NCBI GenBank assembly: GCA_014905825.1
Contig: JACGCN010000068.1
Coordinates: forward strand, 1 to 64,000
Origin: Lyophyllum atratum
Lineage: Eukaryota > Basidiomycota > Agaricomycetes > Agaricales > Lyophyllaceae
DNA: 64,000 nucleotides
Reading direction: 5' to 3'
The notes below the pieces were generated by a model. The model searched no databases. It saw only the letters and a program-made list of their open reading frames with translations, and had not been told where the DNA came from. The position numbers and the translations under genes are program-made. Below, piece after piece: positions 5,176 to 61,616 of the stretch (position 1 is its first letter; each line of letters starts with the position of its first letter).

Positions 5176-5216
5176 GGAGACGAGGTTTCGTTTATATGGG
5201 GGAGAGGCTAGTAAGG

Positions 5217-5404
5217 TGTGGTGACTACCGATAGTCTGAGTGCGACAAAGGTGTGGATTCGAATGCCGTAAACGATAGGCCGATAGCTGAGAGTGCGTCG
5301 TTGCCTCGTCGTGAGTGAGCTAAAGAAACAGTGTCTACAACGCGTGTCCTCCTCATGTCCGTGAAATCACGTGATTCGCGGCTAGCCGTTCTCGAAACCC
5401 CACA
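5217..5404 (-). repeat. LTR (3' LTR in element orientation)
   Basis: 188 bp repeat starting TGTGG and ending CCACA, identical by eye to 6269-6456. Identity of the two LTRs implies a recent insertion. Confidence 0.85.
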
Positions 5405-5464
5405 TCTCCCCCATACTTCTGAATATCAACCGTCCCTGGTTGATCCTCAAACAGAACAAATCTT

Positions 5465-6214
5465 CTAGCCCCCATTTCCGAAATCTACACAGAATTCGCG
5501 GTAGCAGTTGACGATTGCGTCAGTCGGCGGTAGTACGAGCGCACTGTTGAAACTCCTGTGCGTTCGGCGCGTGCGACGGCGTTTTCGTGGTCTGGTACCC
5601 TCATGGTGTTGAAGTCCTCTCGTCTCTTTCCCTCTCTTCTTCTTATCCAGCCCCTGAAACCTCGCAATCTGTCCTTGCATTGCCAGGATCTCTGCAGCGG
5701 TTCGTAGGTCATACTGAGTCGGACACGGCATGGCGTTGGAATCGGAAGTCGGCAGCGGCGTAGTACATGGTGTAAGATCGTCGCGGATAAGCTGCAGACG
5801 GATTGGGGTCGGTATCGATTTGTAAACGTATTTGCAGATTGTGAGATGGCGTTGGCGGGCGTCATGATAGGCTTGTTGAGTCGTGGCGTCGTCATGAGAG
5901 GAAACATGGATGTCGAGGTGGCAAATGAAAGAATTGAATATGCGAAAGTACTCCTCGTAGTAGCGGTACTCGATATACGCGTCAATTGCGCGTGGTGATC
6001 GAGATGTTCCTGTGTCTAGTGGCACACCATTTCCTGCCCGAGCAAAGATTGTGCGCAGAATGCGCCTCGTGAACCAGACTCGATGCGGAATGCAGCCATC
6101 GTGTATCTCGATAATGTCTCGTGAATCTTCTTCTCCCCTGCCAGCTGATAAATTTCGCGCAAATCGCGAAGAACGGTACGGTCGGCGTGCGACGGATATA
6201 AATCTGATTCGCAT
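5465..6214 (-). CDS. Single ORF of the mini-LTR element, unknown protein
   Basis: Uninterrupted 249-codon ORF beginning MRIRFISVARR and ending CVDFGNGG, wholly between the two LTRs. It is rich in Arg and His, with a basic stretch KKKRGKETRG and PRKRRRTRRTHR near the C-terminal third. There is no zinc knuckle CCHC, no protease DTG in a proper context and no reverse-transcriptase motif. It could be a diverged capsid-like (gag) protein or a captured host fragment. Its position suggests it is transcribed from the 6269-6456 LTR. Confidence 0.55.
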   Translation of the reverse strand: MRIRFISVARRPYRSSRFARNLSAGRGEEDSRDIIEIHDGCIPHRVWFTRRILRTIFARAGNGVPLDTGTSRSPRAIDAYIEYRYYEEYFRIFNSFICHLDIHVSSHDDATTQQAYHDARQRHLTICKYVYKSIPTPIRLQLIRDDLTPCTTPLPTSDSNAMPCPTQYDLRTAAEILAMQGQIARFQGLDKKKRGKETRGLQHHEGTRPRKRRRTRRTHRSFNSALVLPPTDAIVNCYREFCVDFGNGG

Positions 6215-6268
6215 CGCGGTCGTGTGAAACTAACAATCCAACAACCTTCCGAAGCGGTGGGCTCCAGA

Positions 6269-6456
6269 TGTGGTGACTACCGATAGTCTGAGTGCGACAA
6301 AGGTGTGGATTCGAATGCCGTAAACGATAGGCCGATAGCTGAGAGTGCGTCGTTGCCTCGTCGTGAGTGAGCTAAAGAAACAGTGTCTACAACGCGTGTC
6401 CTCCTCATGTCCGTGAAATCACGTGATTCGCGGCTAGCCGTTCTCGAAACCCCACA
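6269..6456 (-). repeat. LTR (5' LTR in element orientation)
   Basis: 188 bp repeat, identical by eye to 5217-5404. On its right side AAGG (6457-6460) starts the resumed host unit, which continues as tttagaagaagtaaagagct. This matches cttggaagatgtagagagct of the other units. Confidence 0.85.
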
Positions 6457-7100: not shown

Positions 7101-7573
7101 GGATGCAAGGCTTCGTTCGAATGGAGAGGATGCTAGGAAGGCTTGGAAGATGTAGAGAGCTAGAGGTATCAGCGGTCAGACTCCACGTGTCCACATCGGG
7201 TATATGGGCACACCTCCGTTTACGATGTTGAGGTGGCTTCTGAACAGGTGTAAGTCAAGTATAGGTTTGTATCTTCGCATGTTTCCGACTACTTAGTTGA
7301 TGACTTTAAATAGGGTTTCCATCCAGGCCAGATTCTAGAAAGTGTAACAGCAGGTAACAGATCATGGACCTACACTTGTACACATCAATGATTGGACACA
7401 CATTGCAGCTTCCGCTAGTCATTCTGTTGGTCGGGTGAATCCCATCTTGCTTCTAGAAGTTCTACCAGAGCACCGACGCAACTGAGCACCCACTACCTAT
7501 AGATAGCGGGAATTGAACTCACAATGTAAGGAAATGTGGTTCTGCTCAAATTTTGCCAAACGACAAGATGCAG

Positions 7574-7581
7574 ATATCCAC
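7574..7581. repeat. Left target-site duplication of the KDZ transposon
   Basis: ATATCCAC lies immediately outside the left terminus. Its partner at 20129-20136 is ATATCCCC (7 of 8 identical). The flank before it (gacaagatgcag) and the flank after the right copy are both array-unit sequence, consistent with one unit split by an insertion. Confidence 0.75.
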
Positions 7582-7674
7582 CTCATGCTGACACGATTTT
7601 GCAAAACCGACTGCTATTGCAGTTAAGTCGTTTTGCACACTCGACTGAGAACTACAGCTGGGTTGTTTGCAAAC
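7582..7674 (+). repeat. Left inverted terminal repeat of the KDZ element
   Basis: Begins CTCATGC and contains ATTTTGCAAAACCGACTG, GTTTTGCACACTCGACTGA and GTTTGCAAAC. It matches the reverse complement of the right end with small gaps. The motifs TTTTGCAAAA and GTTTGCAAAC recur and could be transposase-binding sites. Confidence 0.75.
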
Positions 7675-7923
7675 CTATCTGTAGTTTCAGTGATCGCTTA
7701 TGTCAGAGTTCAGTCATTGACATTTCCGGCTGCTCTACATTCCCCGTTGCCCGACATTCCCCGCTTCCCACTCCCGCCTCCCGCCACGCGCTTCATGCCC
7801 GCTCACTCTGGCGAGTCCTCGCCGCGCCCAAATGGCTTGGCTTTAATTGTGTATTTAAATTTATTTTGATTTAAATTAAATTTATTTTGTTTCCATCATC
7901 TGTCAATGCAGCAATTTTCAAAA

Positions 7924-10900
7924 CTATACATTCGCGTCATCGTCATCAGGCTCCATTAGCTCGGGGGGTACGACATCGATATCTAGGCCTAATGCTACGT
8001 ATTCTGCTACAAATCGCCACATGTGCTTGCAGTGGTCCTTCATGGCTCGGAACTGAGACGCCTGCCGCGCCGCGTACGCTTGAAGCCCCTCACTATCAGA
8101 TGTGCTATCTTTTTGCACGAAACATGATCCCTCCGAACGCTGCTTCCACTTCGTAGCCATAGTCTCGAAGAACTGCAGGACCCGGCGCATCTCCTCCAAC
8201 AGAAGTTGCACCTCTTCTGACCATCGATCCGCGCGTGCCTTGCTTTTACACCACTCGATACGTAGTACTAAGACGGGCAAGATACAATTAGTACGAGAAC
8301 CACGATGAAGACGAAATGAACTTACTATCCTGCAAGGCCTCCCTGCCATTCAACTGAGAACCGTCCCCGAACCGCGTCCAGATCCATGAAACGGTCCTGT
8401 GCCCCTCTGACTCCTCACCATCCCCGGACAGCTGTTTAACATCACGATCATCTAGCACGGGGAAGGTAGCTTCCCAATCGACCTTGCCCAGCATGCCTGC
8501 TAGCGCAAGAATGGCGCCTCGCGCTACTCGATATCTTCGTGCCGCCGCGTCGATTCTAACTTTGACCCGGTCGATGATGCCCCGCGATCGAGTGTTGTGG
8601 TGCTGGCCACGTTGAAACCGGTCCTTGTCGATATAGAGATAGGCCTGGAGGCGCAGCGCCTCCCGAAGTTCATCGAGGGCATCATGCGCCTGGGACCGGC
8701 GCAGCTTCCACTCCATCTCACGTAGCCTCGAGTCACATGGTAGGTGTTTCACCGACGATGGCAGCATCAGCGGTATTCTCTCTGCGAGATCAACGGTATG
8801 CTCATCGGTATGATCGTTGCGAGCCATGACGAGCGCTGGCACGTACAGATGTTGAACATCAATCCATGCGGTGATTTTGCGCTTGAGGATGTTACGTCGG
8901 ACCTGGATTCGGGTGTTTTGGAGGTCGGTGGAGTGAGGTCCAAGTTCACTGGAATCAACAGTAAGGCGGCGCCTACCCGCGTGTCAGAAACCATGAAAAC
9001 ATGGATGAATGAGACTCACTGGTGTTCCTCGAGATCTAACCCCATCGTTATCAGCTGGCTGGCTGAGACTGTCTCATGAAGAACATAGGCGATTCCTTGA
9101 TCAAGATCTGCAGCATCTTGATTTGCCAGCTCACGTCGGACCGCCTCCTGAGATACCGCTGGTAGCAAGACAGTCAGAGCATGATCACCATCACAAAATC
9201 CATAAGAGAGACTTACACTTGTAACGCGCCTCGAATGGATTTGGCTTCTTGTGATCCACCAGCCAGGCCTCTAATTCAGCCTTCCAACCCTTGATGTCAG
9301 CCTCCGCGTCATCCAGCCCACTCTCAAATTGGTGATAGCGGAAGACGTGGTCACTACTCTCTGCGACGGCAATCTGGATCTTGCGTAAAAGGGATACACC
9401 TGCCGGACGTCTGAAGTTAGTGATAGAACGGAGGGCATGAAGGGAGGGGCGGCCTACCCATGAGAGTCGTCTTTTTCCAATTCCAGTCCCCGAAGTGGTC
9501 ATCAAGTGTGTCTTGACGAGCACCGGGGCCCATTTCCTTTGTGCTTGTGGCAACAGGGTTGATATGAGACCAGCCACGTTCGGGCGCTTCACCGTCTGTT
9601 CGGCCGATGCCAGCGTTGAAGTTGAAGGAGAAAACTGTTTGGCAAGCCATAATGTGGGCAGGAAGATGGAACTTCGGAATGAGAAATATAACGTGACGTC
9701 GCCCATCGAGATCGACGTGAAGGCGGCTCGGATATTTGCTCATACGTTCCCGTATGTGTATACTCCATTGACATACGATGTCGTACGAGACCACAAGCTC
9801 GGTGAGGTCGGTGTCCTCGAGACTGGAGAAAAAAAGATAGTCCATATTGACGTATCTGTCTATTTTTCAGCTCAAGGAACCTGAGATAAGGAGCTTACAC
9901 TTACCGCTCTGACCTCTGAAGGTCACCAACAGATTTTGGCCGCTTTACATCGTGACGTGCACAGTCAATAGTCCCCACACCAGTCGCAGCTAGTCCTTTG
10001 GCTGAGCGCTCGGCATCGACGGCTTTGTGGTTAGCGCATGTTGAGGGCTGATAGAAAAATAAGTTAGTATCAGAATAACAAGGTGCAAGGTACAGCTTAC
10101 CTCTTGAATGATTAGCGTCCCATACGTGTTCAGAAATCGTATATATTCGTCTTTTTGCACAAAATATGACATGCCGTCGCCCAATGCAGGATCGACTATG
10201 CTGTTTGAAACCTGCTTCCTCTTGAGACGGAAGTTGGCGTCAATTCCCAGAAAAAGTCGATAAAGCCATCTAAGAAAAGCATCAATAATGAGACGGACCA
10301 CGCATGACAAAAGACCTGCCGTTTCTCTGGAGGTGCGTCTTGCCAGCCTGGCGGCAGGTTCAACCCAGGCTGAGGGCATGCGGGGCATAGCACAGCGCAC
10401 TCCCCTGGCATTGTACCAGCTGCGCCGCTTGGAGCGTGGCCTCGCCCTGAACGTTTAAGCATCTTCATATGCCGATATTCGCGAACCATCCGCAAAAATG
10501 CTGAATAGCGATCCTACGTGGGGTGGTTAGCAACGTGCTGAATGCAGAGAAAAACAACATGTACTTTTATATTATCCATGGCCGTATTGTCCGTTAGTCG
10601 TGCCAACGCGTGGTAGAATTCGAAACATGACGCCTTGGATTCGAACGTCAAGAGGTGGAAGTGCTTGAGGACTGCGAACGTTGCAGCTGATTTGGGTTGC
10701 CCGACGGTTGCTGGAAACCAACGGTGGCGAAGGAGCTGAAGGAACGAAAATTGGGCGGCCTCACAATCACAGAAGTCAACTGCAACCTCGTGAATTCCAT
10801 TGATATGCACGACGACGAAGTCGTCGGCGAAGGCAGCCTTGGGGTTCGAACAGATTTCGCCCACTCGGTGGCCAAGCTGAATTCGGAGCCCGAGCTTTTT

Positions 10901-11613
10901 GAGCGATGTCTTCTCAAAGAAACAGCCGTTCCAAGCCTTTGAAGTAAAATGTTATGAAGACCCACATGTTTAAATCAGGAAACTCACCTTGAGTCTATGT
11001 AGACTGTTCTGACGGTGTGCCGTCAAAGTACAGCCGCGACAAAGAATCTGTCCACCCTCGCAGTCCTCGCATCTGTACGTTGGCGCGTTCAACCCGCAGA
11101 CAGGGCATACGTCCTCCGTATACTGGCCTCTCCCCTCCCATCGGATGTCCTCCGCCACGAAGGTATCACGATCTGGTATCCATTGTTTCAGTGGATTGTC
11201 CTGTGGAGCAAATGATGAGCCACCGGAGCTGCCAGGGCAAAATTCCAACTCACCGCTGCACGCCGCCGTCGTGGTGCAACCACTGTGTCCTCCAGGTGCT
11301 CAATGTAGGCAGGGTCAATCCATGACATGTCGCAAGGTGTCGAAAGATCCGAGAAAGTGTGATCATAGTCCGTGGTATTTGTTTCGAACGCGGGGCTGGA
11401 AGGCGGCCGGGAATGTTTTGAAGGCGACGCGGTCATAGGGCGGTAGCGAGTGGACCAGCCTATGTTTCCACCAGGAAGGGTGTGGTAGCGCATGACAGGG
11501 ATATGGGTAGGCTGTGGAGGAGGGGTTGAGGGCCTGCCGTCGTTTTCGCTCGACGCATGCACCTGGATGTGGAGGTTGGGCTGTTTCTTCTTGACACGTC
11601 GTCTTATTGACAT
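7924..11613 (-). CDS. KDZ transposase with CxC2 cysteine-cluster domain
   Basis: Eleven exons: 11254-11613, 10988-11200, 10565-10936, 10320-10513, 10101-10269, 9905-10047, 9458-9855, 9217-9399, 9020-9158, 8326-8948, 7924-8267. Phases agree throughout and give 1,045 aa with no internal stop. Order of parts: basic N-terminus MSIRRRVKKK; the CxC2 KDZ-associated zinc cluster (CPVCG, CEDCEG, CRGC, about residues 140-185); VVHINGIHEVAVDFCDC; CPACPQPGLNLP; WLYRLFLGIDANFRLKRK; GLAATGVGTIDCARHD; YDIVCQW; FLIPKFHLPAH; GRTDGEAPERGWS; DTLDDHFGDWNWKK; and a C-terminal helical part with LRIEWCKSKARADRWSEEV. The family catalyses cut-and-paste transposition with an RNase-H-fold core. The intron after 10320 uses a GC donor. 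No frame break was found, so it is probably functional. Confidence 0.93.
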
Positions 11614-11855
11614 TGATGGAGGGCAGCTACAAAAGAGAATTGAGCGTGGTATAGGCTGTAGAGGTATAGGACGTACCAAAGAACTTTGAAAAAAACCTTG
11701 GGGCATGGAAGACTAGTCCTAGGTGAAAAGGTCAGCAAGTGGGGGCCCAGTCGCCCTGGGTCTTCCATGAAACATCCATGTGGTCGCGAACGCCCAGGCG
11801 GAGCATGAGGAGTCTGGTGGAAAACGTTTACGAGCATATCAATTTCAGCTAATAA

Positions 11856-13582
11856 TTACATGTGGTCAAGAAGTGATGGATGAAATACTTCGCGCCGATC
11901 ACGATCCAGATTCGTGATCGTCGAAAACAAATCCAATGCCTCGCGTGTCCTCTCTGCATCGTCGCCGTCCAGCTTGCGTTTCAAAGCCTTCCCGCCCTTC
12001 TTTGACTCCAGCGATCGAGCGGTTTGGAACCCGTACTTCACCCATCGAAAAAGTCCACCAGCGCAGTACTGGCTGATTGATACTCTGCGTTCGCCGTCCT
12101 GAATTAGGCAGTTACCATGGCGGAGGATGCTGGAGGGAATTAGAATAGTCGATCCCGGTGGAAACTCAATCACCCAGCCGAGATCGAACAGGATGAGATG
12201 GCCCCCTTTCGTCGGATCGTAATTGCCGCCTGCCGTGAGGGCACACATACCATACGCGACGTTGCCGGGATCTGTGTGATCGAGGGTGACTGTGGTGGGG
12301 CCGAGGTTGAATGTCGTGGCTGGGAAGATGCTGTTGGAGAAGTTCGCGCGTAGGCCCGGTTTATGTAGCCATAGCTGCTCTAAGTTCGTTGCGTAGTCTT
12401 TGTAAACCTTGGGGGCATAATACGCAAAGGCACCTGTGAAATCAGTGGGTGGTGAGTGGGTTGGCATGTGCGAAAGAGTCGGTCGACGCACTGGATTGAA
12501 AACCTGCCAACCGTTGTATATTGGGATCATCCAATAACGAATCGAGAATCTCACCCGTCTCAGGGGAGTGAACGAGGTTTTGGGGCTCCTATATGCCAGC
12601 TTTAGGTCAGGGGGGATGGATGTGGTGCAAGGCGGATGGAGGACTGCTTACCGGTTGCCCTCCACCATGTGATACCCCGACGGCTAACGCAATGAAGCGC
12701 CCTCGACGATGGTCCATCTGATCGCTCGTGAAAGCACCACTGGCTTCTCCACGCAAACGAGCATTAGCCATCGCGTTCTCCACTGCTGCCACGACCGCCG
12801 GCCAGGAGGGATCCGAAGGCATGCCTGCAAGGATGACAGTGGCACGACCAGCGTTGTCGGTGAGCGCATGAGGAATCCTAAGTAGAATAAGCAATTAGTT
12901 TACACCTCAGAGCAAAGGCATACACGTACCGGCCTTTCCAAGGGAAGGGCTCGACCCCCTCCGCCTTCAGCTCTTCAAGGGTCCAAGGTGTTGACCTGCC
13001 GCCTTTGATGCGTCGCCCGACCCAGCGCCCCGATGCCGCTGGCAAGATTGTCGAATCGACCTGAGTAGGAATGGGAGAGACGCCGATAGCTCTCAAGGTC
13101 GGCGTGCTGCGTGGGCGGTAGCCAATGGCTGGCATCAGGGGTTGGAGGGCCTTGGCTTTGTGCTTCCGGCGCGTCTTGGACCGCGCCTTGTTTCGGGAAG
13201 CTTCGCTGCCAACGACGTGTTGGGTCACCGACGGCGGCGTTGGTTTTGAGCCATGGGTTTCGGTGAGCGGTGCAGGCGGTGGATGTGGTGGATGCGGTGG
13301 ATGTGGTGACGTGCAGCGTCTAGGGAGGGGTCGTGTTGGGCGATCCGTTGGTGGTGGTTGGGGGGACAGAGGCGCGTCTTCATCATGTCCATCGTCGCCG
13401 AGAAACTGCGCAGACTCCGCCGCCAGCGCCTGCTGTAGGAGAGGTTCCATAGATACGTGGGTTTTGAGGTCGATCAGCGCAGGTGAGAATGCGGCGAAGG
13501 TGACGCCTGAGCGTGTCTGTGTGATCAGTATAAGGGTAGTCAACATAATAGCATGCTAATGAACACGCACCTTTCTTTCCAT
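11856..13582 (-). CDS. TET/JBP-family Fe(II)/2-oxoglutarate dioxygenase
   Basis: Exons 13571-13582 (MERK), 12930-13516, 12652-12877, 12504-12588 and 11856-12433 give 495 aa with matching phases. The N-terminal 200 aa are Pro/Arg-rich and low in complexity. The dioxygenase core follows: NFSNSIFPATTFNLGP, then the HxD iron ligands in LDHTDPGN, GGHLILFDLGWVIEFPPGS, a candidate distal His in SSILRHGN, and the 2-oxoglutarate-binding Arg region GERRVSISQY. Fungal TET/JBP enzymes oxidise 5-methylcytosine (some N6-methyladenine), and their genes are often coupled to KDZ transposons. This one lies head to tail behind the transposase, within the same element. Possible role (inference): altering methylation of the element or its target. 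Confidence 0.9.
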
Positions 13583-14246
13583 AATGCTGCTAGGTTCACA
13601 GAGGCAACGAGAGCTGGAGGAAGAAGTTAGCGCCCTGTTGCAGTGAGAAATGCAACGAAAAGTTTAAAAAAAAGGGGGGGGACAACGTGAGCCGCCGTGT
13701 GCCCATGGGTGAGGCTCGCCGTGCAGCTCCCGTGTCAAGAATAGCTAAGTATTGAATTCAAATGGAAACGTACCGAGCGGACGAGACAGAACGTGTTGAA
13801 CGCGTTGAACGCGTCTGATGTGCTGAACGGGGCCAGATTTGAAGTCGAGGAAGTTGCCATCCATTGTGGTCACGGGTAATCAACAAGACCAAATCGGGAC
13901 AATCTCGATGAAATCTGTCGCTTGTGTGCAACCGACATGACGCACCTTACATTTAACCGACTGTTGCAAGTCGCGAACATCACCTAGATGGTGGCGAACG
14001 GTTGCGAACCTCGTCGCAAACATCCAGTAATCTCCCTATACCAGTACTCAGAAGGGACAGGGGGGTACAAGACTTATGGTGAGTGTTCTTGCTTATGTTT
14101 TCAACCACTTTATATACTGCTTGAGGTCCTCGCATATTCCCTCGTTAATAGGGAGCAAATCACTGCTAAAACGTCAGGATCAAACTATCAAAACAGCAAT
14201 ATGAGGCCTTCGCCTTTCTGTTCAACCACCACCACCAGCCAGAACG
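13583..14246. other. Divergent promoter region inside the transposon
   Basis: Separates the TET/JBP start (13582, minus) from the next gene (14247, plus). Between 13968 and 14023 it has a cluster of GCGAAC-type words (GGTGGCGAAC, GGTTGCGAAC, CGTCGCAAAC). The same words recur in the same orientation at 19036-19080. It also contains a run of A followed by a run of G at about 13665-13682. Confidence 0.4.
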
Positions 14247-15200
14247 ATGTCGGACCTTGAGCAGGATGGCTCTACTATTGGAGACGACATCTCAAAGCAT
14301 CAGAGATACTATGAAAAGTGCGCTTTTATCTCTTATCTCGCATTAGACATACATTGAGATCTGCTACAGGAATAAATCTAAATGCCAAGAATCCGCAAAA
14401 CTACGAATGGCGAGACTACGAGAACGAAGGTAAGCATGACGGTTCTTATAGAAACATACTAAACTTCCCATACAGGAAACAGGCGAAGATTGCGGATAAC
14501 GAACTGGGGAAGAGACGGACGCAGGAAGAAGAAAGGTACGTCATATAACACGGAAAGATCTATGGTTACAATTTGTACATCTAGTCGCCCTTCGATGGAT
14601 CCCGAATCCGATGGCGAAATAACCCTTCCGCCAGGTAACGACGTCCTCATCCTTCACGACGATTTATTTGGGTTCGACCATCACTTCGACCTTGGTACAT
14701 CCGATACACCTTTAACACCTCAGTCACGAATTGGCGAAGTCAGATTTTCGAAAGTGCCGCCCAACCCCAACGTCAGTTTCGGACACTTCGATCGTTCTGA
14801 ACCTGATGCAAGCGCCGTCGACGACACCGAGGACAGCGACCAAATCCACTTCGAGCTATTTCGGCAAATTCAATCGGATGTTCAACTCTGGGGCTGCGCA
14901 TTTGGAGGCGGGGTATCTACGTGGTCTACGGCACTCGAGGAGACGTATGCGGATGCCATCGAGGCCAACGACGTGGAGGGATGGCTAGCGAATGTCTGGG
15001 GCCACGCAGCGGAGGGGCGACACCTGCTTTCGACGCTGAGGAACATGGAGGGGGAGCTACCCTACGAGATGTGGAAGATTCGGGAGCTGTGGAGACTAGA
15101 GGTCGAGCTCGTGGAGACAGTGGTCCGAGGCATTTCTTGCCTTGAACTGCGGAGTGGTCTTGTGCAAACGGGTGGGCTAAATCTTGTTACAAGTTACTAG
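14247..15200 (+). CDS. Transposon cargo: basic-region protein of unknown function
   Basis: Exons 14247-14317, 14370-14429, 14476-14535 and 14585-15200 give 268 aa in a continuous frame. The N-terminus carries a highly charged helix, HQRYYEKNKSKCQESAKLRM and then ARLRERRKQAKI, which resembles a bZIP-like basic region or coiled coil and may bind DNA. The rest is acidic and aromatic (DVLILHDDLFGFDHHFDLG) with a helical C-terminal third (LWGCAFGGGVSTWSTALEE; MWKIRELWRLEVELVETVV). Short genes with such Arg-rich N-termini are common near transposons in agaricomycetes (recollection). No specific role is assigned. Confidence 0.7.
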
Positions 15201-15253
15201 TTATGATATAATATATTCATAACGTTTTGACATAAAAATCACGGTCTTTTCTA

Positions 15254-16100
15254 CTAAGGTGTCAATGTTGTACGTGTAGTAGCTACCGTGATCTTCTGAA
15301 CGCGACCGCCAACCAACGCTTGTTGGTAAGCTGCACGTGCAAGCGCTTCAGTACTATACCGCGAAGGATTGCCCCCAGAGATACCGCTAACATTTTCCGC
15401 GAGGCCTGCCCTATGAAACCGCATGTCTATGAGTTTCTTGCACAAGGACTTCATAGGCGATGAGACTTACGATCCGTTAAATACACCTGGTTCCCGTCCA
15501 ATAAGAACTACGTACCACCGTCCCTCAGAAGACGCTACACCACACACGTGGTTAAGAAAGGACCTGCATGATGTAAAATAAAAGCAACGAACCAGCGGGT
15601 GAGGGCGGCCGCGAAGCAGGTGAGGGCGGTCGAGAGCTTGAGGTCCAATCCTCCAAATCAGATGGCATCGAAAACGTGGCATCGGGGCTCGAGGGCACAG
15701 TAACACTGGGGCGGGCGGGTTCAGGTTGTTCCACTTGAGCAAGGGTCCCTAAAGCATCAATAAACACATCTGAAGGCAGTTGGTACGTGCTGGATGAGAA
15801 AAAAGTGGCACTCACGGATGGGTATGGGGGTGACGCGCTGGAGGGCTAGGGACAGATTCAGAGGCGACATAAGCAAGCGAAGTATCTGCAGTTGCTGAAA
15901 ACTTACTCACCTGTTTGGGCAGCGTTGATGGCAGTCTGCGCGGTGTTGAGCGAGGATGCGCATTGCGCAAGGGACTGAAGCGCAACAGCCCACGAGCACC
16001 GGCACCGCTCATGGGACTGCAGTTGAGCAGACTCCGAGCAGCGACAATGGTCACTGCCGTTGCTGTGCGGGTTTAGTGGCTCGCGAGGTTGCTGGGTCAT
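15254..16100 (-). CDS. Transposon cargo: RNase H1 N-terminal (viroplasmin-like) domain protein
   Basis: Exons 15911-16100, 15816-15837, 15593-15789, 15471-15534 and 15254-15410 give 209 aa. The C-terminal module WYVVLIGREPGVFNG followed by ENVSGISGGNPSRYSTEALA and AAYQQALVGG matches the RNase H1 N-terminal / caulimovirus viroplasmin fold (YVV..GR..GV..... V.G.SG....Y.T...A..AY). That small fold binds RNA/DNA hybrids or dsRNA. There is no RNase H catalytic domain. The N-terminal part is Ser/Pro-rich with a duplicated SRPPSPA. Exon 4 was joined at an acceptor 58 nt downstream because nearer acceptors gave impossibly short introns. Confidence 0.7.
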
Positions 16101-16465
16101 TGTGAAGAAGGGGGATGTGTGGTGCGAAACAAAAGCGCATCAGTTTATACCCCAACATCTGAGAGTATCACATGGGGCGTACCTCGATACTTTGCAAAAC
16201 TCAGTACTTTGCAAAACTTCAGTCAAAGTCCCAATGATTGGTCTCTTGATGGGCGATTGCGTTGAGATCGGCTGAATCGGTGGATGATGCTTTATCCCGA
16301 TTGCTGAAATAGATTATAGTCGAGAGAGGCGGTGGCGGGTGGGGCCTAGTGAGCGTGCAATGTGGTCCATGCACAGATTGGAATTGAGGTCGAGTATATG
16401 CTAAATGACGATCAAACTGTTGCAGAAAAAAATTGTTGTGGAACTCACCTTTTCCGTCTATTGCG
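16101..16465. other. Divergent intergenic region within the transposon
   Basis: 365 bp between the start codons of the viroplasmin-like gene (minus) and the 720 aa gene (plus). It holds a local direct repeat, ctttgcaaaactcagta / ctttgcaaaacttcagt, at about 16192-16222, which echoes the TTGCAAAAC word of the element ends. No ORF is supported. Confidence 0.4.
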
Positions 16466-18839
16466 ATGCCTCGGCGATGGACAACAGACGCCCAGGCTGC
16501 CTGGCTGGGGGATCAACTACCTGGATTCTTGGATGCTCAGAAAACTGGACAGACGGGCCGTTTCGAGCTGCTTACCGCAGAGGCTTGGTTCAAGGAGTGG
16601 CCCCTTGACGACACACTTGAAGGAACTGCAAAAAACAAAGCCGTAACGGATCGTAAACAGGTCAGTTAAAATGTCACCCGTACAAGCCATAATAATCAGC
16701 TCACCTTTTGTAGCAACTCAGGCGGTGGTTCTTTTGGCACTCGAAGCCAGCCAACCGAGCGATCTCAGCCAAGACATCAGCATTGTTCAGGAAGCCCGAA
16801 GCAGTGAAGACGCGTGTTCCCAAAGCTATTCATGCATACCAACACCTGTATAAGGAGAAGACCGTAACAGCTATACAGGCGGCGTTGCTCGAGGCCGGTA
16901 AAATTGACCCAAAGACACGGCTGGCGATTATCAAAAGAGTTCCGGAAGACATGTTGGCGGCAGAGGAAAAGAATGTGTTGGACGAGGTAGCTGCATACAT
17001 TAAAGATAAAAGGGTGACAAGGGATGAAGAGCGACGGGCTGCAGAAGATGCAGACGCGTCCGATTCTGCCTCGGAGGGTGGACGGACACCAAGCCAGTAT
17101 CACGCGTATGTTCACATGTTCAAGTCACATGTCCTTTGTAGTCTCGTGTTGACTTGCAGCATTAGCGCCATTCAACAGTTTCCGGCTGCTGCTCAAGAAT
17201 TTCTCCAAGCTGCCGCAGAGGCGACGGGATGGGTCATCCACCTGGTGGCTGCCGGGCCAAATCCCGTCCACAATGGTGACATTTCGAGTATCCAGTAGGT
17301 GGCATGGCTTCTTCTTTATTGGTACATAACTGATACACCGGCTAGGCAAAATTTCGGCCCAACATCTATAGCAGGAAACACATTTCAGCAGGCGCATGCG
17401 GGATATATAGAACACATACAAGACCCATTCCTAGCCCACGTCAAAGCAATCTTCCGTGAGTACTCGTCCCCGTTGACTCTACGCGGCAAAGCTGATCTCA
17501 CCATGCAGCCCACGACATTCGGCGTAATCGATCCCTGATCGCGGAACAGCCTCCACTCAGTGCAGTGCGCAACCACGGTGGCAACAAGACAGACTCACCC
17601 GGTCCACCCTCCGTCAACTTTGACACGCTCATACCACTCCCACCTATCACCATTCAAGACGAGATCTCACAACCGTCCGATTTTGCCGGCGACATCGAGG
17701 ATGCGCGAGGTAATGATGGCATGGAGTTTGACTGGGACTTGGACAAGTTCCTGGAGGATTGGGATGCTGAGTTCAATGGGTTGCCGAATCCCACAGGCGA
17801 GTTACTCTCGACTGCTCCGCAGGCCGGTGCCCTGCCATCTGCTGGATCCCTCTCAGCATTATTAGCTGAGGATTGGCCAGCTCAGTTCGGCCCGTTGCCA
17901 GGATCAAGTCTCGATCCAGTGTTCTCTATTCCCGCGGTTCCAACGTGTTCACCACCGCCTATAACCCCGTCCTTCCAGCAAACACTGTTGATCCCGAACT
18001 CGGTAGCGCCGTCGTCAACCCCCTTCCAGCAACTACCGTTGATATCGAGTTCAGTGCCGTTGTCGTTAACGGCTCAGCAGAGTTCTATTGCAACACAACA
18101 GCTGCCTCCGCAGACGGCTATCGTACCCTCACTCCATACACCACTCGCGCGCATGCCTCCAGCAGCAGCTATCGCATTCTCACCGCCAATCTCTGCGATT
18201 TCGCGACCCGTTGCAACACCACCGTTGATTCCGCAGGTGGCTATTGTACCCTCATCTCATACACCTCCCGCGCGCTCGCCTCCATCTCATACACCTCCCG
18301 CGCGCTCGCCACCATCACCGTCTCCCACGGCCACCAGTAGCGCAACGGCACTCCTGCCAACGGTTACGACAACGGCCTCCCCCCAGTCATCGCGTCACAT
18401 GGAACCCACGGATGGTTCGGACTACGTGGTCCTTGATGCCGCCAACCGAGTCACGCAGGAGCTCCAGAGCGGAACTGTGGAGCCAGATACCTCCAAGGGT
18501 GGTGATGCGGCAGTGGCAAAGCGCAAAGAGGCAGCGAGGAAACGAGCGGAAACGATGGAAAAGAAGAAGGCGGCCGCAGCGCAGAAGAAGGAGGCCGCAG
18601 CGCAGAAAAAGGAGGCCGCATCAAAGGAGAAGGAGGCAGGGATAGAGAAGATGAAGCGGGGATCGTCCGGGACGAAGCGGAAGGCATCGACCACGGAAGA
18701 GGTTGCTTCAAACCTGCTTCGCCCCCGCCGAAACGCTCAACCGCCTGCTAGAGCCGACCGTACCCCACCCCCACCCGCTCCTCCGGCCCCAAAGAAATTG
18801 TATGTGCCGTTTCTTTCACTACCTCCAGAACTTAACTGA
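16466..18839 (+). CDS. Transposon cargo: 720 aa protein with Lys/Ala-rich tail, unknown function
   Basis: Exons 16466-16660, 16714-17105, 17160-17294, 17346-17455 and 17509-18839; phases agree. The N-terminus reads MPRRWTTDAQAAWLGDQLPG and later LRRWFFWHSKP, an arrangement I have seen in a large family of uncharacterised agaricomycete proteins (recollection, not verified). The middle is Pro/Ser/Thr-rich with duplicated HTPPARSPP. A coiled region has three imperfect copies of AAAQKKE, followed by RGSSGTKRKAST, a likely nuclear signal. The acidic segment GMEFDWDLDKFLEDWDAEF could be an activation domain. Overall it looks like a nuclear regulatory protein, but that is inference. Confidence 0.7.
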
Positions 18840-19879
18840 TACTAGTTGTGTTCAGACGGCAGATTTAGGATATGCTAGTGAGCTTAGTCGTATCTAGGTA
18901 GTTTATGATACATAAAGTAGTTTATCGAGTGCGAAAAATGAATACAAATGATTTATGATCATAACTAGCTTCATAAGCCCAGAGATAACAACAAAGATGT
19001 AGTGTGACCGTTCGGACTTAGTGTATTTTTCATGGAGGTGGCGAACAAGTTGCGAACAGTCGCGAACATGGTCGTGAACATTTCACAAACACCGTGGCAA
19101 ATGAAACCAGGCTAAATGAGTACCTTTCCAGAGGGTAGTACATCGCGGGGGTCATACTTGTTTGAGGGGTTTTTTTGGGACCCTTGGGCGTAAATTGCCC
19201 CTCATGTCTAGAAATACCCGCTACTTTATGTAGTGGGTTTCTGTCCGACATGCCCCCTTTGGCCACTAAAGCTCACCACCGGTATAGTCAGCTGATCCTG
19301 TACTTTTTTTTCGATGTCCGCTCCTGATACCACGTCATTCGTCTGTCAGGCCCCTGCGCTTTCGTCGCTGTGCTCTTGCGGTCCTCGATTCAACTGGGTC
19401 AAAGCAAGATGTAGATACAGCGTCAATGAATAAAGATAGAACTGCCGTGGAGTCGCATTGACATCACTGTCGTAGTCCATGCCAATATGGAGGGGGCTTG
19501 CATGCACGAAATCTATTAATCTATTACATATCATTCGGCTACAAAGAAAGGGCTGAAAGTTAGCGGGCTGTGCGGCGGGACGGCGCCCTATGGTGTTATG
19601 ATGTCATGGTAGGAATTTGGGAGGGCGCAGCTGCGCCCTCCAGGCACCTTACCACATCACATGACCTTGCTCAAAGTTAACTGCTAAGTCAATAACCGCA
19701 ATTATGTTTTGCAAACCATTTCCAATAAGTGTGTGAGGCTGTGTGAAGATGTGGCGGGATCCTTGGCATTGTGCGGCACGACGACGCGAGGTCGTAGACA
19801 TGATCACCAACAGCCATCAACGTGCACGCCGCTTTTGGCCAGGACAAGCGGAGAAGCGCAGTGAAGGTACCTAAATATA
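18840..19879. other. Non-coding right arm of the transposon
   Basis: No supported gene. It holds a GCGAAC cluster (19036-19080) matching that at 13968-14023, and a perfect 22 bp palindrome at 19620-19641 with half-site GGAGGGCGCAG. Confidence 0.5.
19620..19641. repeat. Perfect 22 bp palindrome
   Basis: GGAGGGCGCAG followed directly by its reverse complement, with no loop. It lies in the non-coding right arm of the KDZ element. Possible dimeric protein-binding site or transcription/replication hairpin. Confidence 0.7.
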
Positions 19880-20128
19880 GACCAGCTAAGGATACCCGAG
19901 AGGACCGAAGCGGTTTGCAAACTTCAGTCGACTGCAATTTTCAGTCGGTTTTGCAAAACTATCAAACTGTCCGCGCGGCAAAAATTTCTAAAATTGGATC
20001 GGTTAAGAATACCCGAGAGCGCTGTAGTTTGCAAACTTCAGTCGACTGCAATTATCAGTCGAGTGTGCAAAACGCCTTAACTGTGTATCTCAGTTCTATT
20101 TTGCAAATATACCACGGTACTGCCTGAG
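19880..20128 (-). repeat. Right inverted terminal repeat and subterminal tandem repeats
   Basis: Two imperfect direct repeats (about 19886-19968 and 19999-20071). Each has atacccgagag, then tttgcaaacttcagtcgac, then tgcaatt.tcagtcg and tgcaaaac. The outer copy pairs with the left end. The outermost 20121-20128 is TGCCTGAG. Confidence 0.75.
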
Positions 20129-20136
20129 ATATCCCC
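20129..20136. repeat. Right target-site duplication of the KDZ transposon
   Basis: ATATCCCC directly outside the right terminus, one mismatch from ATATCCAC at 7574-7581. Confidence 0.75.
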
Positions 20137-29587: not shown

Positions 29588-30331
29588 ACCAGTAGACCTT
29601 GACCTCGTAGAGATCGATCCTAGAGGTACGGCTAGACTTATATTGATAAATCACTTACAGAGGAGCCCGTGTTCTTACCCTACCCTACGACTGCGTCGCC
29701 TCTCCCCTATATTAGGATTCAGATACTTACTCTAGGTCTTGCGTTTCTCTGGACCCCGCTGGGCCATCTTGTTTACTTTCGGTTGGTAAATAATCTTTTG
29801 GTTAAATTTCTTGGCTTCAGGTGTGGCGAGGCCATCAGATGTGATCATGGTGAGAGGGGATGAGCATTAAGGTAGATACCGTATGACTTGTCTGATACAA
29901 GTTTTTTAAGATTTCACGTATCTCCTCACTAGGCATGTTCCTTTCGACTATTACTTGAACAACTTTTGTGTTCGAGATGTCGATTTTATTTTGTTATTGA
30001 GGTGATGGCGAGGTCATTAGTAGTAATTACGGATGTAGAGAAAAACGGTGCATAGGTATGGGTTGAATAAACGATTTTATTTTGTTATTGAGGTGATGGC
30101 GAGGTCATTAGTAGTAATTACGGATGTAGAGAAAAATGGTGCATAGGTATGGGTTGAATAAAACAGATGATGATATACAAGCGGCAACGGCGCGTTCTCC
30201 TGAAGTCTATATATACGTGGTCGGTAGTCAAGTCCAATGTCTAATGCAAAAGAGAGATCTATAACCAAGAGATGGGATGCAATGGAGCGGAGCGGAGTGT
30301 GGAAGAAAACCAAGAAAAACCGAAGAACAAA
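29588..30331. other. Convergent intergenic region
   Basis: 3' flanks of CCP1 and the arrestin gene, including a 91 bp tandem duplication (listed separately). No ORF is supported. Confidence 0.45.
29981..30162. repeat. Two-copy 91 bp tandem duplication
   Basis: Copies 29981-30071 and 30072-30162 begin cgattttattttgttattga. They differ at one base noticed by eye (aaaaacgg versus aaaaatgg), so the duplication is recent. Confidence 0.85.
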
Positions 30332-61388: not shown

Positions 61389-61616
61389 CAAACATGGAGG
61401 GGAAAGCGGTACGCCTTGCAACGATTCATCATGTGCCGTTCAACGCTAATTTCTTCTGGCAGATACAATGCACTCCTGCCACCCGTAACGTAGCAAGTCC
61501 CACAAACATGGAGGAGAAAGCGGTACGCCTTGCAACGATTCATCATGTGCCGTTCAACGCTAATTTCTTCTGGCAGATACAATGCACCCCTGCCACCCGT
61601 AACGTAGCAAGTCCCA
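61389..61616. repeat. 114 bp in-frame tandem duplication
   Basis: Two near-identical copies, about 61389-61502 and 61503-61616, each encoding KAVRLATIHHVPFNANFFWQ. Because 114 is divisible by three, the reading frame is kept. Differences seen: ggggaaa/gaggaaa-type changes and actcc/acccc. Confidence 0.85.

What the first reader, a model, noticed from the sequence alone, without database searches (positions are those of the whole stretch)
7582..20128. Complete 12.5 kb KDZ transposon carrying a TET/JBP dioxygenase
Both ends, the inverted repeats, a near-perfect 8 bp target duplication (ATATCCAC / ATATCCCC) and an 11-exon transposase with an unbroken 1,045-codon frame are all visible. The interrupted site can be recognised because it is a tandem array. 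KDZ transposases and TET/JBP genes are known to be linked in basidiomycetes, but a fully bounded element with intact cargo gives exact ends and content. The enzyme may modify methylation of the element itself.
Basis: partly seen in the sequence, partly recalled or inferred. Interest (0 to 1): 0.88.

Follow-up and report, generated by a model that had tools for sequence, protein, structure and literature searches.

The report
Complete mushroom jumping gene carrying TET
A complete 12.5-kb mushroom transposon, present on one assembled copy of a chromosome region and missing from the other, carries its transposase, a TET-like DNA-modifying enzyme and three more genes; such elements are already known, but this one has well-supported ends and gene content.

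Summary
It spans 7579-20126 (12,548 bp, CACCT...GCCTG) between exact 7-bp duplications AGATATC. A sister family in the same genome shows the same end pattern (19 bp, then TTTGCAAA, at both tips) and exact 7-bp duplications. A matching contig carries the empty site, so the insertion is dimorphic. The host is Lyophyllum atratum. Five genes are open in my spliced models: KDZ/CxC2 transposase (11 exons, 1,053 aa), TET/JBP dioxygenase (499 aa), A, B (RNase H1 N-terminal-like) and C. The order recurs in other families. The TET model matches CcTet, NgTET1 and TET2 best, yet has Asn (41 of 41 aligned sequences) where CcTet has Gly and was not linked to CcTet by any sequence search; it does not fit the published AG-type residue rule. 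Sister copies differ mostly by CpG-type transitions (29 of 42; 17 of 64 in flanks), as if such elements are methylated. Complete TET+ Kyakuja elements with 7-bp duplications and CA..TG tips were published in December 2025 (PMC12730594): a well-bounded new member.

The parts
7579..20126 (.). Whole element, 12,548 bp, CACCTCATGCTG...GGTACTGCCTG
   Evidence: Ends from sister family and symmetric TTTGCAAA sites; empty site
7572..7578 (+). Left target site duplication AGATATC
20127..20133 (+). Right target site duplication AGATATC
7598..7605 (+). TTTGCAAA at bases 20-27 from the left tip
   Evidence: same place in the sister family
20100..20107 (+). TTTGCAAA at bases 20-27 from the right tip
   Evidence: same place in the sister family
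7620..7657 (+). Left arm of subterminal inverted repeat (partner 20046-20083, 89%)
20046..20083 (-). Right arm of subterminal inverted repeat
7924..11613 (-). KDZ transposase gene with CxC2 cluster, 11 exons, 1,053 aa, open
   Evidence: Pfam KDZ 1.1e-65 and CxC2 1.1e-44
11856..13582 (-). TET/JBP dioxygenase gene, 5 exons, 499 aa, open
   Evidence: Tet_JBP 2.1e-4, 21.0 bits, below its cut-off of 34.9; fold
14247..15200 (+). Gene A, 4 exons, 268 aa, basic N-terminal part, unknown function
   Evidence: relatives
15254..16100 (-). Gene B, 5 exons, 198 aa, RNase H1 N-terminal-like (Cauli_VI) domain at its end
   Evidence: Cauli_VI 22.5 bits for the tail, 19.8 bits for the whole protein, cut-off 21
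16191..16215 (+). Two TTTGCAAA sites between the divergent genes B and C
16466..18839 (+). Gene C, 5 exons, 720 aa in my model (702 aa in GenBank's), unknown function

Best explanation
A complete, probably autonomous cut-and-paste DNA transposon of the KDZ superfamily, best placed with Kyakuja, in the mushroom Lyophyllum atratum. Shown: exact ends, 7-bp duplication, an empty site on a matching contig, five open gene models, a TET fold with intact Fe and 2OG residues, and recurrence of the gene order in other families. Inferred: the transposase binds the subterminal TTTGCAAA sites and inserts with a 7-bp stagger; the TET enzyme oxidises 5-methylcytosine that the host lays on the element and so delays silencing; A, B and C assist in nucleic-acid or chromatin binding.
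Against: No expression, methylation or transposition data. No other copy of this exact sequence was found. One transposase intron must be GC-AG for the frame to stay open. Of 59 TET places in the genome, 34 have no KDZ match within 9 kb. The window element shows no CpG depletion (0.976 against 0.864-1.023 around it). The region is held by three contigs (C117, C108 and the end of C71, which is 99.6% like C108), so a simple two-haplotype reading is inference. Kyakuja against Zisupton was not tested by a tree.
Confidence: 0.85

Rival explanations
1. One reading: an 8-bp duplication ATATCC[A/C]C around an element CTCATGC...GCCTGAG with a short terminal inverted repeat, as in Zisupton.
For: Tips would read CTCATGC and, reversed, CTCAGGC (6 of 7 alike). 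Zisupton makes 8-bp duplications (PMC12730594), and KDZ1 of Cryptococcus too (PMC12810828 passages).
Against: Needs a mismatch in the duplication. The sister family's ends and exact 7-bp duplications align with 7579/20126, and TTTGCAAA is equally far from both tips only there.
Confidence: 0.04
2. The TET gene does not protect the element; it acts on other DNA or another base, or its oxidised marks help silencing.
For: CcTet acts on 6mA as well as 5mC (PMC11040006 passages). Oxidised cytosines also lie on retrotransposons (PMC12730594), and a repressive role is discussed for Laccaria and Coprinopsis (PMC8889193 passages). Sister copies carrying TET still show a CpG-transition excess.
Against: Asn at the CcTet Gly331 position in 41 of 41 aligned sequences; the passages of PMC11040006 say that Asn or Asp there favours 5mC and clashes with 6mA. 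Twelve of 15 gene A places have TET nearby, so the gene is kept in the cassette.
Confidence: 0.25
3. A dead or host-captured element: frames look open only because splice sites were chosen to keep them open.
For: Splice sites were chosen by consensus and frame; one intron is GC-AG; no identical second copy was found.
Against: Exact duplications and an empty site on a contig 96-99.8% alike in most blocks point to a recent insertion. Invariant catalytic residues. GenBank's model of gene C is 99% like mine over the queried part.
Confidence: 0.1

Closest known systems
TET+ Kyakuja elements of Agaricomycetes (Kojima 2025, PMC12730594; parts 1-5 of 7 and passages seen)
   Same: KDZ transposase plus TET gene; 7-bp duplications, CA..TG tips and no terminal inverted repeats, as reported there for Kyakuja-1_LB and Kyakuja-2_LB
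   Different: TET residues do not fit its AG rule (Gly or Ser at 331, Asp at 337); three further genes and symmetric TTTGCAAA sites are not described in the text that I saw; its supplements could not be opened
CcTet of Coprinopsis cinerea (8jkk, 7w5p, 7vpn; PMC11040006 passages)
   Different: 16% identity; not reached by sequence; Asn for Gly331, Cys for Asp337, Tyr for Phe391, Ala for Arg393 (offsets counted without gaps)
KDZ1 of Cryptococcus neoformans (PMC12810828 passages)
   Same: About 11-kb KDZ element with a cysteine-cluster transposase
   Different: 241-bp terminal inverted repeats, 8-bp duplications, CxC1 domain; no TET mentioned in the passages seen
Accessory genes of fungal KDZ elements (Iyer et al. 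2014, recalled and not held; general remark in PMC12477816 passages)
   Same: KDZ elements carry extra genes; a divergent HMG protein is recalled from that abstract
   Different: Whether gene C is that HMG protein was not tested; Pfam finds no family in P0121 or P0122

Membership tests
KDZ transposon superfamily | KDZ transposase domain | tested here: met
   PF18758 E 1.1e-65, 221.8 bits (cut-off 26.6), full length 1-217 of 217
KDZ transposon superfamily | Zn-binding cysteine cluster N-terminal to the KDZ domain | tested here: met
   CxC2 PF18803 E 1.1e-44
KDZ transposon superfamily | Catalytic acidic residues of the transposase | not tested
   No alignment to a transposase with proven catalytic residues was made
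Kyakuja lineage | 7-bp target site duplication | tested here: met
   AGATATC exact; CTACCAC and CCTGACG in the sister family
Kyakuja lineage | CA..TG tips without terminal inverted repeats | tested here: met
   CACCT..GCCTG tips; inverted repeats only subterminal
Kyakuja lineage | Transposase groups with named Kyakuja in a tree | not tested
   No named reference transposases were at hand
Zisupton lineage | 8-bp target site duplication | tested here: not met
   The 8-bp reading conflicts with the sister-family ends
TET/JBP dioxygenases | TET/JBP double-stranded beta-helix fold | tested here: met
TET/JBP dioxygenases | Pfam Tet_JBP above its cut-off | tested here: not met
   21.0 bits against 34.9; 18 of 41 aligned sequences match at E 0.01 or better
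TET/JBP dioxygenases | HxD...H iron site and 2OG Arg | tested here: met
   H360, D362, H413 in 41 of 41; R424 in 39 of 41
PE-type TET (PMC12730594) | HxE instead of HxD | tested here: not met
   HxD in 41 of 41
AG-type TET (PMC12730594) | Gly or Ser at the CcTet Gly331 position | tested here: not met
   Asn at His+5 in 41 of 41, by ungapped offset from HxD, not by superposition
AG-type TET (PMC12730594) | Asp at the CcTet Asp337 position | tested here: inconclusive
   Cys at His+11 in 41 of 41, but this offset may vary between TETs
AG-type TET (PMC12730594) | Close sequence relation to CcTet | tested here: inconclusive
   Five PDB sequence searches did not list CcTet; no AG-type sequence was at hand for a direct comparison

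The most novel reading that the evidence does not exclude
Kyakuja-like elements of mushrooms carry a large TET subfamily (510 proteins in one search) that is not the CcTet-like AG type. It keeps a TET2-like Asn and Tyr in the base pocket but has Cys and Ala where CcTet has Asp and Arg, so it should prefer 5mC over 6mA. It travels in a conserved five-gene cassette (transposase, TET, A, RNase H1-N-like B, C), and in this element B and C diverge around two further TTTGCAAA sites, which could let the transposase regulate its own cargo.
Probability: 0.4. Interest if true: 0.6.

Novelty: new member of a known kind. Interest (0 to 1): 0.42.

Why it matters
It gives exact ends, an insertion with its empty counterpart, and five open genes in a mushroom genome with dozens of related loci. 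Whether a transposon-borne TET enzyme protects its own element can then be tested by comparing methylation of filled and empty alleles and of TET+ with TET- relatives. If the pocket residues hold up, they also question the inference that mushroom transposon TETs act on 6mA.

Tried and rejected
An exact 8-bp reading AGATATCC (7580-20126) is possible from the window alone; rejected for the same reason. CcTet by sequence in the PDB: not listed; the rows listed were T-cell receptor chains, YIL161W, drebrin and other unrelated proteins, all at E 0.0066 or weaker, and one search gave none. Gene C as an HMG protein: Pfam found no family in P0121 or P0122; its structure job was never accepted, so this is untested. 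Foldseek itself against the PDB was not accepted; VIA-align was used instead.

Papers: one listing for KDZ with HMG, transposase and fungi gave one paper, on brown algae; passages of it mention fungal KDZ accessory genes only in general. A listing for Lyophyllum atratum with genome gave five papers, not opened. PMC8290104 (Marasmius oreades) was seen as four passages; it says terminal repeats of KDZ elements are in its supplement, not opened. Iyer et al. 2014 is not held.

Full report
WHAT IS THERE. The window is the first 64 kb of a 172,347-bp contig (C117) of a 64.76-Mb genome in 151 contigs. A protein identical to our TET exons is filed as Lyophyllum atratum FPV67DRAFT_1439646 on a contig of exactly that length. 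Between two copies of AGATATC (7572-7578, 20127-20133) lies a 12,548-bp insert that begins CACCTCATGCTG and ends GGTACTGCCTG. It sits in a tandem array with units of roughly 850 bp; the one unit frame tested has no Pfam match.

EMPTY SITE. The outer flanks match contig C108 at 97%. In a joined alignment, 500-bp blocks are 96.1-99.8% identical to C108, except 85.6% in the block just left of the site and 91.3% in a short first block of 92 aligned bases; the block that spans the site has 97.6%. The end of C71 is 99.6% identical to C108 there and is empty too, so three contigs hold this region; that C117 and C108 are the two haplotypes is inference. With one AGATATC kept, the joined flanks run through the junction of C108 without a gap at the site; a 19-bp gap begins 20 bp further right. 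Apart from overhangs at the two ends of the compared stretch, the one other gap of 30 bp or more is 1,225 bp, at about 5208-6432.

WHICH ENDS. AGATATCC is repeated exactly and ATATCCAC/ATATCCCC nearly so; the 7-bp and both 8-bp readings give joined sites of the same length, so the empty site does not decide. A sister family does. Copies at C13:879002-892388 and C65:131468-144914 share ends CACCTGATACTG...ACAGTATAGCCTG and have exact 7-bp duplications, CTACCAC and CCTGACG. With these ends TTTGCAAA occupies bases 20-27 from both tips in both families. Genome-wide, CACCT-N14-TTTGCAAA has 7 places; 5 are left ends of KDZ/TET elements (C117, C13, C65 twice, C77), and the reversed control has 2. TTTGCAAA-N14-GCCTG has 7 places; 5 are the matching right ends, and the control has 1. 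The C77 pair is 26.9 kb apart, so that element is longer or interrupted. In the window element TTTGCAAA occurs 9 times (Markov mean 0.285, at most 3 in 200 runs), 7 of them in the outer 250 + 450 bp; the other two lie at 16191-16215 between the divergent genes B and C. The sister family has 4 in the left and 3 in the right outer 800 bp, and 0 in 10,365 bp of the interior that I held.

GENES. Five spliced models are open: transposase 11 exons, 1,053 aa; TET 5 exons, 499 aa, A 4 exons, 268 aa, C 5 exons, 720 aa; B 5 exons, 198 aa. Splice sites were chosen by consensus and frame, so exact junctions are inference. GenBank's model of C (702 aa) agrees over most of its length and differs at one acceptor and at the end. 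Pfam: KDZ 1.1e-65, CxC2 1.1e-44, Tet_JBP 2.1e-4 (21.0 bits, cut-off 34.9), and the RNase H1 N-terminal domain in B at 22.5 bits for its tail (cut-off 21) but 19.8 bits for the whole protein. A and C have no accepted Pfam family.

RECURRENCE. The own genome gave 109 rows for KDZ, 65 for the TET exon, 18 for A and 17 for C. I merged them by hand to 65, 59, 15 and 13 places, dropping second fragments of one gene and further exons of the window's own A and C. Of 59 TET places, 17 have a co-oriented KDZ within 6 kb on the expected side, 12 a divergent A within 9 kb and 10 a divergent C within 12 kb; 34 have no KDZ within 9 kb. Of 15 A places, 12 have TET within 9 kb and 13 a KDZ within 12 kb. Of 13 C places, 9 have TET within 12 kb and all 13 a KDZ within 14 kb. 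By my arithmetic a random place has a listed KDZ within 14 kb about 3% of the time; no shuffled control was run. Gene B is found in the same place in the sister family. In Collybia nuda, A and TET carry locus numbers three apart and both lie on a contig of 292,743 bp; another A and C both lie on a contig of 6,230 bp (contig names are not shown, so identity of the contigs is inferred from length).

METHYLATION FOOTPRINT. Between sister copies (C13 against C65) 29 of 42 transitions are of CpG type, with 26% expected from composition. In two flank stretches (C117 against C108) it is 17 of 64, with 23-25% expected (Fisher p 2.1e-5). The nearly identical C65 pair (2 of 3) was left out of the sum. 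This suggests that such elements are or were methylated at CpG although they carry TET. The window element shows no CpG depletion (0.976; around it 1.023, 0.864 and 0.967). A young insertion, protection and weak methylation cannot be told apart here.

KNOWN OR NEW. PMC12730594 (parts 1-5 of 7 and passages) reports TET+ Kyakuja elements in five orders of Agaricomycotina and gives 7-bp duplications and CA..TG tips without terminal inverted repeats for two Laccaria bicolor families. This element meets that description. In the text that I saw I did not find the accessory cassette, the symmetric TTTGCAAA sites, an empty counterpart, the name Lyophyllum, or a Kyakuja TET outside the AG residue rule. 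The supplements could not be opened, so some of this may be there. Iyer et al. 2014 (recalled, not held) already reported extra proteins in KDZ elements. Hence: a new member of a known kind, with an open question about its TET subfamily.

Noticed in passing
window 5217-6456: A 1,240-bp insertion with identical 188-bp direct terminal repeats (TG..CA, 0 mismatches) and a 4-bp AAGG duplication, absent from C108: it looks like a small, young LTR-type (TRIM-like) element.
   Followed up: partly
G000 C65:131468-144914 and C65:145601-159050: Two nearly identical copies of the sister element (4 substitutions in 4,415 aligned bases) lie head to head 686 bp apart, suggesting an inverted duplication or two insertions.
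   Followed up: no
G000 C77:599219-626164: A left and a right end of the sister type lie 26.9 kb apart around KDZ, TET and A matches, about twice the length of the other copies; perhaps a nested insertion.
   Followed up: no
G000 C84:212268, C1:3184390, C141:717825, C2:117470 (gene C) and C108:497949, C13:63263 (gene A): Gene C or A lies near a KDZ match without a TET match in reach: possible TET- relatives, useful as controls.
   Followed up: no
G000 C75:1478460-1479193: The closest TET relative in this genome (72-79% identical in its better pieces) has several in-frame stops and no KDZ match within 9 kb: a decayed copy of a near family.
   Followed up: no
window 29981-30162 and 61389-61616: Two tandem duplications (91-bp and 114-bp units, 98% matches).
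   Followed up: no
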